Shown: positions 1 to 59,230 of the stretch, piece after piece
Position numbering within the stretch: position 1 is the first letter of the stretch
Layout of the letters: every line of letters starts with the position of its first letter
NCBI GenBank assembly: GCA_028874995.1
Contig: JAPPGM010000126.1
Coordinates: 19,996 to 83,995 of the forward strand
Reading direction: 5' to 3'
Length of the DNA: 64,000 nucleotides
Origin: Gemmatimonadota bacterium
GTDB lineage: Bacteria > Gemmatimonadota > Gemmatimonadetes > Longimicrobiales > Gaopeijiaceae
Made by a program: the position numbers and the translations under genes
The notes under the pieces: generated by a model
Told to the model about the DNA's origin: nothing
Seen by the model: the letters and a program-made list of their open reading frames with translations, nothing else
Database searches by the model: none

Positions 1-270
1 CCGAGCCCCATCGCCCTCGTGCTCGCGATGAGTCCGAGGATGGGTGGCCCGGACCGGGTGTGTGCGCGTTCGCGATCCTGGGCCGGCAGGGAAGCGACGC
101 TGGACGACAGGGCCAGAGCGCACCACGCCGACGCTAGAGCTGCCCGTGGACAGAATCCCCCCGGTATTCGAGCGGCGATGCATCCGGTCAGGACGCTTCG
201 CTCTACCTTTCCATGATGTAAACTACACACTACATTATGTTATGTTTGCTGTACATTTTATCGGTTTAAG

Positions 271-395
271 GCTGCGCTCTGCGTTGCTGCTCAGCCCAAT
301 AGCGCTTGCTATTGGCCCTTCGTCGCGCCTTGCCATCCCGGCGCCTCGCCGCTCTCGGTGCTCGCGGGGCTCTATCCACGGGCTGCAATCAGGGC
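271..395 (+). repeat. dispersed ~115-bp intergenic element, copy A
   Basis: Aligns by eye with the reverse complement of ~58960-59085: shared CGCTCTCGGTGCTCG and TCCACGGGCTGC, about 33/38 identical in the core, weaker homology (GCTATT, TGCCANCCCGGC) across ~115 bp. Contains perfect hairpin CCAATAGC-GCTT-GCTATTGG at 296-315. Confidence 0.65.
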
Positions 396-12666: not shown

Positions 12667-12791
12667 CCGCCCGCGATGGACACGCTGCCGGACTGGCCTC
12701 AACGCGACGGCTTCGTGTCGTGTCCCATGGGAGCGACTACGGACCGTCCACCGCGTGCTTGCCACGCCAACCCTTCACCACGAGCGGCTGA

Positions 12792-32305: not shown

Positions 32306-33217
32306 GTGCGCCGGTGGCGTCCCCCCCCCCGCCTGGCCCGTCTGGCGCCGCACTGCTCCCGGTGCTCGCGGGGCCTTGCCCACGGTCTGCTGGCGGCCGC
32401 GGTCACAGGGTTGGGTGGCGGGGTGGGCGGGGCGGCCGCCCAGTGGGTGGAGGAGCCCGGCAAGGGGTGGATCGCGCTGGCCGTGTACCACCAGGACACG
32501 CGGGAACGCTTCGGGATCGGGGGAGACACCCGGGCGCTGTTCGCCGACGGGCACGCGGTCACGACCTCGTCGTTTCTGACCGTCGCCATGGGTCTCGTGC
32601 CGGGGATCGACCTTTGGAGCCAGTTGTCCTTCCACCGGCTCCGATACGACGACGTGGCGGGCAAGCGGTCCTCCACCGGGGTCGGCGACACGCGCCTCTG
32701 GTTGAGGGCTGCGCCGCTGAAGTGGCTGGGTTCGGGACTGCCCTTCGCCGTCCGGGCCGGATTCAAGGTCCCCGCCGGCGACTTCGACGTGGACGCCGAG
32801 GTCATCCCGCTCGGGGACGGACAGCGCGACTGGGAGGTGCTGGCCGAGGTGGGACACTCCTTCTGGCCGCTGTCTCTTTACCTCTCCGGGTGGGTGGGCT
32901 ACCGGTGGCGCGAGGAGAACGCGGAGGCGAGAAAGGACTTCGGAGACGAGGTGTTCTACTTTGCCCAGATCGGGGGACGGCTGGGCCGATTCGGATACAG
33001 GCTGGCGGTGGATGGGTGGGACGGGGCCGCCGGTGTCACGGAGGGGGTCCCGATCCCGAATTTCCAGCGCGACCTGGTACAGCTGCAGCCGTCGCTGCTG
33101 TATGATGTCGGTCCCGGACAGATCGAGGCGGGCGCGCGCTTCGCGTTGAAGGGCAGAAACCTACCGGCGGGAACCGCGCTCATGTTCAAGTACTTCACCG
33201 GATGGGAGCCGTTCTGA
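32306..33217 (+). CDS. outer-membrane transporter-like beta-barrel protein (MetA/phenol-degradation-like)
   Basis: GTG start chosen; mature part QWVEEPGKGWIALAVYHQDTRERF...TVAMGLVPGIDLWSQLSFHRLRYDD...GVGDTRLWLRAAP.. ends KGRNLPAGTALMFKYFTGWEPF. Confidence 0.65.
   Translation: MRRWRPPPRLARLAPHCSRCSRGLAHGLLAAAVTGLGGGVGGAAAQWVEEPGKGWIALAVYHQDTRERFGIGGDTRALFADGHAVTTSSFLTVAMGLVPGIDLWSQLSFHRLRYDDVAGKRSSTGVGDTRLWLRAAPLKWLGSGLPFAVRAGFKVPAGDFDVDAEVIPLGDGQRDWEVLAEVGHSFWPLSLYLSGWVGYRWREENAEARKDFGDEVFYFAQIGGRLGRFGYRLAVDGWDGAAGVTEGVPIPNFQRDLVQLQPSLLYDVGPGQIEAGARFALKGRNLPAGTALMFKYFTGWEPF
32321..32330. repeat. poly-C (C10) homopolymer tract in the 5' coding region
   Basis: GGTGGCGT CCCCCCCCCC GCCTGG. Confidence 0.95.
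32328..32395 (+). repeat. possible diverged copy C of the dispersed element
   Basis: GCTCCCGGTGCTCGCGGGGCCTTGCCCACGGTCTGCT vs copy A GCTCTCGGTGCTCGCGGGGCTCTATCCACGGGCTGC; translations CSRCSRGLAHGLL vs RSRCSRGSIHGLQ. Confidence 0.35.
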
Positions 33218-50363: not shown

Positions 50364-50510
50364 GAAGACAGCGAGGCCATGCTGGGAGCACCCCGAGAGG
50401 CTTGACCAGCAGCCCCGACAGATGAACGAGGCGGCCCGGCGCGGATTCATCGCCGAGCGAAAGACGGGAAGGGTTTCCACGGGCCGCCACATTTCGGGAG
50501 ATAATAGGAC

Positions 50511-58737: not shown

Positions 58738-58965
58738 GTGCTCATGTGGAACACGCGTTCCGTCCAGTTGAATGTCCGTCTCCCGCAGGATGTCGCCGCC
58801 GAAGCCGAAGAGGTTCAGCGCTCAGATCCCGACTTCCTCAGCCGGATCGTTCAGTACGGCCTTACGCGGCGTGCCATCTACCGCAGCCTCCGCGAGGTGG
58901 AGGAGCGGGAAGCAGCGGTAACCCCTCTTTCGGTCGACACCGCTCCGGGTTTTCTGCAGCCCTAG
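58738..58965 (+). CDS. small ribbon-helix-helix-like protein
   Basis: NTRSVQLNVRLPQDVAAEAEEVQRSDPDFLSRIVQYGLTRRAIYRSLREVEEREA; GTG 58738 or ATG 58744. Confidence 0.55.
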   Translation: MLMWNTRSVQLNVRLPQDVAAEAEEVQRSDPDFLSRIVQYGLTRRAIYRSLREVEEREAAVTPLSVDTAPGFLQP

Positions 58966-59085
58966 CAGCCCGTGGACAGGGCCACTCGAGCACCGAGAGC
59001 GCTTGGGGGCCGGGCTGGCAGGGCACGTCCGGCAAGGGAATAGCAGCGCCGCCTGCCCGAAAAGCAGCGCAGGGCGGGAATGCAC
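58960..59085 (-). repeat. dispersed ~115-bp intergenic element, copy B
   Basis: Reverse complement contains CGCTCTCGGTGCTCGAGTGGCCCTGTCCACGGGCTGC; minus translation RPALLFGQAALLFPCRTCPASPAPKRSRCSSGPVHGLL parallels copy A RSALLLSPIALAIGPSSRLAIPAPRRSRCSRGSIHGLQ. Confidence 0.65.
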
Positions 59086-59230
59086 CCGGGGGTTTTCCAC
59101 GAATCGCCCGCTTGGAACCACCCGCCATTACCCGTTTCGGGACATGATCCGCTATCGTTGTGTAGTTACTGGTAAACAGTTGTGTGTTCCAGTATCGTAG
59201 TTCGGACTCAAAGCGCAGGTGGAGGAGAAG

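What the first reader, a model, noticed from the sequence alone, without database searches (positions are those of the whole stretch)
271..395. Dispersed ~115-bp intergenic element in at least two copies (271-395 +, 58960-59085 -)
Copy A and the reverse complement of copy B share CGCTCTCGGTGCTCG...TCCACGGGCTGC (about 33/38) plus weaker colinear similarity over ~115 bp. Neither lies in a supported gene. Both begin just downstream of the stop codon of a neighbouring gene (minus ExbD-like gene at 406, plus RHH-like gene at 58965) in the same orientation relative to that gene. Copy A carries an 8-bp perfect hairpin (296-315). The conceptual translation is also similar, so an unannotated small ORF cannot be excluded. 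It may be a MITE/REP-like element, a 3'-UTR element or a structured RNA.
Basis: seen in the sequence. Interest (0 to 1): 0.6.

Follow-up and report, generated by a model that had tools for sequence, protein, structure and literature searches.

The report
Palindromic mobile repeat docked at stop codons
The two similar stretches are copies of a small non-coding mobile DNA element, present in dozens to over a hundred copies per genome in a genus of uncultured Gemmatimonadota (probably sponge symbionts), which tends to sit right behind the stop codons of genes and whose transposing enzyme was not found.

Summary
Copy A is the right half of a complete element, window 139-386 (+, 248 bp). Copy B (58966 to about 59106, -) is a degraded member. 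The window's genome has 67 matches to a covariance model, a complete relative has 111, and all 22 other genomes of the genus carry the family. It comes as a short form (core 170 bp) and a long form (core 245 bp, extra AT-rich module). Ends are inverted repeats (CAGYCCGTGG...CCACGGRCTG), the target is about CTRG, and a 3-4 bp target duplication shows in some copies. Orthologous sites without the element exist, one inside this window. Left ends preceded by TAG lie on a real stop codon in 16 of 27 copies; stop codons are 11% of non-genic TAG sites. Pairing of the arms is kept by compensatory changes. It is not coding, and no REP-type (Y1) transposase was found in three genomes of the genus. IS1111/IS110-type elements use one fixed position in it as a landing site. 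Two MAGs titled Acidobacteriota carry their own multi-copy subfamily. Best reading: a new MITE family with a stop-codon-biased target. The mobilising transposase was not found in 54% of a complete genome. Any host function is unknown.

The parts
139..386 (+). Complete long-form element (copy A); core from about 140 to 385, ends CTGCCCGTGGACAG ... CTATCCACGGGCTGC
   Evidence: aligns end to end with the consensus of 74 long copies; 82% to a sister copy over 248 bp; covariance-model hit G000:C153:20131-20379
139..200 (+). Left arm of copy A (GTGGACAGAATCCCCCCGGTATTCGAGCGGCGATGCATCCGG...), pairs with the right arm
   Evidence: fold of 135-391, z -4.3; consensus structure
201..268 (+). AT-rich module present only in the long form, flanked by GCTTCGCT-like direct repeats
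   Evidence: absent from short copies; long and short alleles at one orthologous site
269..386 (+).
   Evidence: profile hit 58-175 of 176
58966..59106 (-). Copy B, degraded short-form member with a deletion in the left arm; no longer folds as one hairpin (z +0.68)
58962..58965 (+). CTAG holding the TAG stop codon of the upstream ORF (58738-58965), junction of copy B
   Evidence: sequence; matches the target consensus
32330..32391 (+). Right-end remnant of a third member
   Evidence: 77% over 61 bp, E 3e-8; profile E 2e-4
50418..50487 (-). Probable left-arm remnant (weak)
   Evidence: profile E 4e-5
12735..12741 (-). Empty orthologous site: a sister genome (G012, L033) has a full long copy here, the window has only gTAGtcgctccc

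Best explanation
A family of non-autonomous palindromic transposable elements (MITE kind). A transposase acting in trans (inferred, not found) recognises the near-identical inverted ends and inserts the element at a CTRG-like target, making a 3-4 bp duplication. The target contains TAG, so an insertion beside a stop codon leaves the upstream gene's stop intact and the downstream start untouched; such copies persist. Copies then decay, lose or retain an AT-rich internal module, form head-to-tail arrays, and serve as landing sites for other mobile elements. Shown: copy number, ends, target preference, empty sites, location, loss of coding signal. Inferred: the transposase, and selection versus targeting as the cause of the stop-codon bias.
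For: High copy number in every one of 22 other genomes of the genus, 67 and 111 model hits in two genomes. Inverted ends and two size classes. Orthologous empty sites at five or more loci including one in the window. Flank duplication above chance: 4-bp 16 of 97 versus 6.1 shuffled (2000 shuffles, maximum 14); 3-bp 26 versus 12.1 (maximum 22); examples CTAC/CTAC, CCAA/CCAA and CCCG around each unit of a trimer. Left-TAG junctions at stop codons 16/27 versus 11% of non-genic TAG sites, p 2e-9. Whole-element pairing with 13 of 46 pairs changed on both sides versus 5.7 in shuffles. No coding signal.
Against: No autonomous relative with the same ends among the multi-copy families in 54% of the complete genome G021. 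Only 16-27% of copies keep an exact duplication, so its length stays uncertain. The interior is more conserved than the outermost arm, more than a plain deletion-derived MITE needs. Orientation follows transcription in 54 of 63 tandem gene pairs, which a palindromic target alone does not predict.
Confidence: 0.82

Rival explanations
1. A structured RNA or cis-regulatory element kept between co-transcribed genes (operon processing site, or 5' element with a promoter in the AT-rich module) that spread like a repeat and is now under selection for function.
For: Compensatory pairing, orientation with transcription 54/63, tight spacing to the next start codon, AT-rich module also seen alone upstream of genes that look like carB, murA, recQ and rsmI.
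Against: Empty orthologous sites at the same gene pairs; copy-number and long/short polymorphism at one site; no Rfam match; no terminator-like match, and only one promoter-like consensus match in one of two copies scanned. Inverted ends of a transposon also covary.
Confidence: 0.12
2. REP/REPIN element moved by a RAYT (Y1) transposase.
For: Palindromic, intergenic, high copy, targeted by IS1111/IS110-type elements as REPs are (PMC11187229).
Against: No Y1 transposase (PF01797) match in G000, G021 or G014; target duplication present.
Confidence: 0.02
3. A small protein gene.
For: Frame 0 of the long form is open in most copies and has fewer stops than random relocation predicts (11 versus 36).
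Against: Synonymous fraction 0.321 versus 0.304 expected; GTG start changed to GCG in 19 of the 43 copies scored, which were mostly short; conserved block read in different frames in the two titled phyla (sequence).
Confidence: 0.02

Closest known systems
Correia elements / NEMIS of Neisseria
   Same: Palindromic MITE-like, two sizes differing by an internal insert (107 and 155 bp; PMC2229807), intergenic, long stem-loop transcript
   Different: Correia ends carry TA; here the target is CTRG, the ends are CAGYCCGTGG, sizes 170 and 245 bp, and the location is biased to stop codons. A sequence relation was not tested
REP elements as targets of IS1111/IS110 (ISPa11, IS621, ISPpu10)
   Same: An IS1111/IS110-type element sits at one fixed position of the repeat in at least five copies
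   Different: This repeat is longer, has a target duplication, and no RAYT was found
Rickettsia palindromic elements (RPE)
   Same: Palindromic, largely open reading frame
   Different: RPEs are found in frame inside genes; these lie mostly between genes and show no protein-level constraint
RUP of Streptococcus pneumoniae
   Same: Non-autonomous, intergenic, inverted ends
   Different: RUP is linked to IS630-Spn1 and TA targets (PMC2229807); no partner is known here

Membership tests
MITE | short, non-coding, terminal inverted repeats | tested here: met
   170/245 bp core, CAGYCC...GGRCTG ends; no coding signal
MITE | target site duplication | tested here: inconclusive
   3-4 bp matches significantly above shuffles but exact in only 16-27% of copies
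MITE | insertion polymorphism (filled and empty sites) | tested here: met
MITE | related autonomous transposon sharing the ends | tested here: inconclusive
   not found in 2.4 of 4.47 Mb of G021; the rest was not readable
REP/REPIN | Y1 (RAYT) transposase in the genome | tested here: not met
   PF01797 absent from G000, G021, G014
Correia/NEMIS | TA at termini, TA target | tested here: not met
   target consensus CTRG, ends CAG/CTG
integron attC | RYYYAAC / GTTRRRY core sites at the ends | tested here: not met
   not seen at the ends by inspection of the sequences
integron attC | integron integrase gene | not tested
   no search was made
known structured RNA | Rfam family score | tested here: not met
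   no gathering-level match in the window

The most novel reading that the evidence does not exclude
A transposon family whose preferred target is effectively the TAG stop codon: it docks between genes, in the direction of transcription, duplicating the stop and sparing both neighbours. It uses the stop codon as a safe harbour and has spread as diverged, structure-conserving subfamilies through symbiont communities of at least two phyla.
Probability: 0.35. Interest if true: 0.6.

Novelty: new member of a known kind. Interest (0 to 1): 0.42.

Why it matters
It shapes intergenic space and assembly breaks across a whole genus of uncultured Gemmatimonadota. Its stop-codon bias gives a testable case of how a mobile element can multiply without breaking genes. 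It is also a landing pad for RNA-guided (seekRNA/bridge RNA type) IS1111/IS110 elements, so it offers natural target series for that system.

Tried and rejected
Small peptide: neutral substitution pattern; stop depletion in frame 0 remains unexplained. Translation-transparent ORF linking operon genes: start codon not kept, and frame 2 is as open as frame 0 in short copies. REP/RAYT. Autonomous partner: the 1183-bp candidate is an RlmN-like gene between two end remnants, the 2291-bp candidate holds an HNH/DUF222-like ORF, and the 1478-bp recurrent one is an IS1111/IS110-type element inserted in the repeat. Gene names without a Pfam call are my reading of the translations. 'Gammaproteobacteria' as a third host phylum: those MAGs (G061, G062, G063) match, by contig coordinates, genomes in the window's own family, so the record titles mislead. 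Chloroflexota: 2 copies, the one examined on an 11-kb contig; contamination not excluded. One search used the wrong coordinates and says nothing; the 16S search missed G021 and both Acidobacteriota MAGs. No match in viral contigs, plasmids or phages.

Full report
Observation. Aligning the two reported stretches gives 77% identity over 88 bp, E 4e-12 in the window. A DNA search of the window's own genome (G000, 4.52 Mb MAG) with the right half of copy A finds more than 40 places. Searching with window 136-390 shows that the element is larger: full matches run to both inverted ends. Aligned to the consensus of 74 long copies, copy A is complete from 139 to 386. Copy B is a degraded short form, 58966 to about 59106, with a deletion in its left arm and no whole-element fold. 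A right-end remnant lies at 32330-32391 and a weak left-arm remnant at 50418-50487.

Anatomy. Ends are CAGYCCGTGGAYA...TRTCCACGGRCTG. Two size classes dominate, cores of 245 and 170 bp. They differ by an AT-rich module between GCTTCGCT-like repeats. One orthologous site holds a long copy in G000 (L004) and a short copy in G021, and is empty in L070. Ends-only derivatives of 41-56 bp and head-to-tail arrays occur, with the same 4-bp unit CCCG before, between and after the members of one trimer. Five short copies at about 171-bp period lie at G021 3738486-3739347.

Mobility. Orthologous empty sites were read at several loci; one is in this window (minus strand 12741-12735: gTAGtcgctccc against aTAG[element]CTAGccgctccc in G012). 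Over 97 oriented copies the left and right flanks match over 4 bp in 16 (6.1 in shuffles) and over 3 bp with one offset in 26 (12.1 in shuffles); the target consensus is CTRG. This supports insertion with a 3-4 bp duplication, though most copies have lost an exact one.

Location. With a home-made gene caller (open frames plus codon-position GC, not a published predictor), gene-like stop codons lie within a few bases of the left end in 33 copies and of the right end in 6. Among copies whose left flank ends in TAG, 16 of 27 are on such stops; genome-wide 3-8% of NTAG sites are, and 11% of TAG sites outside predicted genes. In 63 copies between tandem genes, 54 point with transcription. Part of this follows from the target: many stop contexts are NTAG with N other than C, which fit only one orientation. 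Whether targeting or selection does the rest was not separated. These tests were devised after seeing the data.

Structure. Window 135-391 folds as one long hairpin, z -4.3. On 23 divergent short copies, 46 consensus pairs are 96% formed and 13 show two-sided changes against 5.7 in shuffles and at most 3 when slid. The titled Acidobacteriota copies have different outer arms that still pair, such as GTGGTGGAACT/AGTTCCACCAC. Inverted repeat ends by themselves covary, so this shows a maintained palindrome, not an RNA function.

Not coding. Substitutions are no more synonymous than expected (0.321 versus 0.304). Frame 0 of the long form does carry fewer stops than random relocation predicts (11 versus 36), but the null ignores site-rate differences and the short form shows nothing of the kind.

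Host range. All 22 other genomes of the genus match. In the phylum, 31 of 150 sampled genomes and 9 of 74 genera match. Named records are mostly Gemmatimonadota/Longimicrobiales MAGs. That they come from sponges is my inference from the bin prefixes (RHO, IRC, SB06xx, jk18x), not read from the records. Two MAGs titled Acidobacteriota from two projects have 58-64 copies of their own version, mostly 187 nt, and 13 of 16 genomes in that group match. None of their places appeared among 395 genomes of the window's phylum, while one copy 85% like the Acidobacteriota version occurs in G022. Contigs titled Gammaproteobacteria turned out to match members of the window's own family, so the titles are not reliable, and the Acidobacteriota titles carry the same caution.

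Mobiliser and hitch-hikers. No Y1 transposase in three genomes of the genus; no repeat family over 600 bp with these ends in 2.4 Mb of G021. An IS1111/IS110-type element (PF02371 E 5e-24, PF01548 E 3e-15) sits at the same base, TCCACG^ATGGAGTGG, in at least five copies, as IS1111 relatives do in REPs and attC sites (PMC11187229). A second insert with right end CTTGATTTGCGATACTTCCGTC sits at CGCCTTG^CCAGCC in several genomes.

Verdict. A new MITE family, ordinary in kind, unusual in its stop-codon bias, in its wide spread and in its role as a landing pad. A prokaryotic MITE review has no mention of CTAG targets, stop codons or these phyla, but the library searched covers open papers only.

Noticed in passing
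G021 3906772, 2232330, 4006220, 3355575, 3972461: An IS1111/IS110-type element of about 1.2-1.4 kb inserted at the same base (TCCACG^ATGGAGTGG) near the right end of at least five copies.
   Followed up: partly
L030, L104, L135, L180, L182, L184-L187: Another repeated insert with right end CTTGATTTGCGATACTTCCGTC sits at CGCCTTG^CCAGCC inside copies in several genomes; its other end was not found.
   Followed up: no
G021 3113710 and L110:1-104: Intron-like boundaries inside copies: a GTGCGCC start resembling a group II intron within the AT-rich module, and a 3' end resembling a group I intron before AATAGCGCTGC. Rfam gave no match for L110.
   Followed up: partly
G021 4152672, 3944645, 3982374, 3896324, 3872463: The AT-rich module with a left arm, or nearly alone, lies just upstream of genes that read like carB, murA, recQ, rsmI and a tRNA-Ser; it may act as a promoter or operator.
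   Followed up: partly
G021 3018595-3022238: A copy split inside its AT-rich module by 3.4 kb whose ends resemble CCTTATTCATGAA, the ends of a 13-copy 1.8-kb repeat family in G021.
   Followed up: no
long-form copies, frame 0: Stops in one frame are about threefold fewer than random relocation of substitutions predicts, without any synonymous bias; not explained.
   Followed up: partly
G061, G062, G063 = G430, G162, G286: MAG records titled Gammaproteobacteria match, by contig coordinates, genomes placed in the same family as the window's genome; the titles look wrong.
   Followed up: yes
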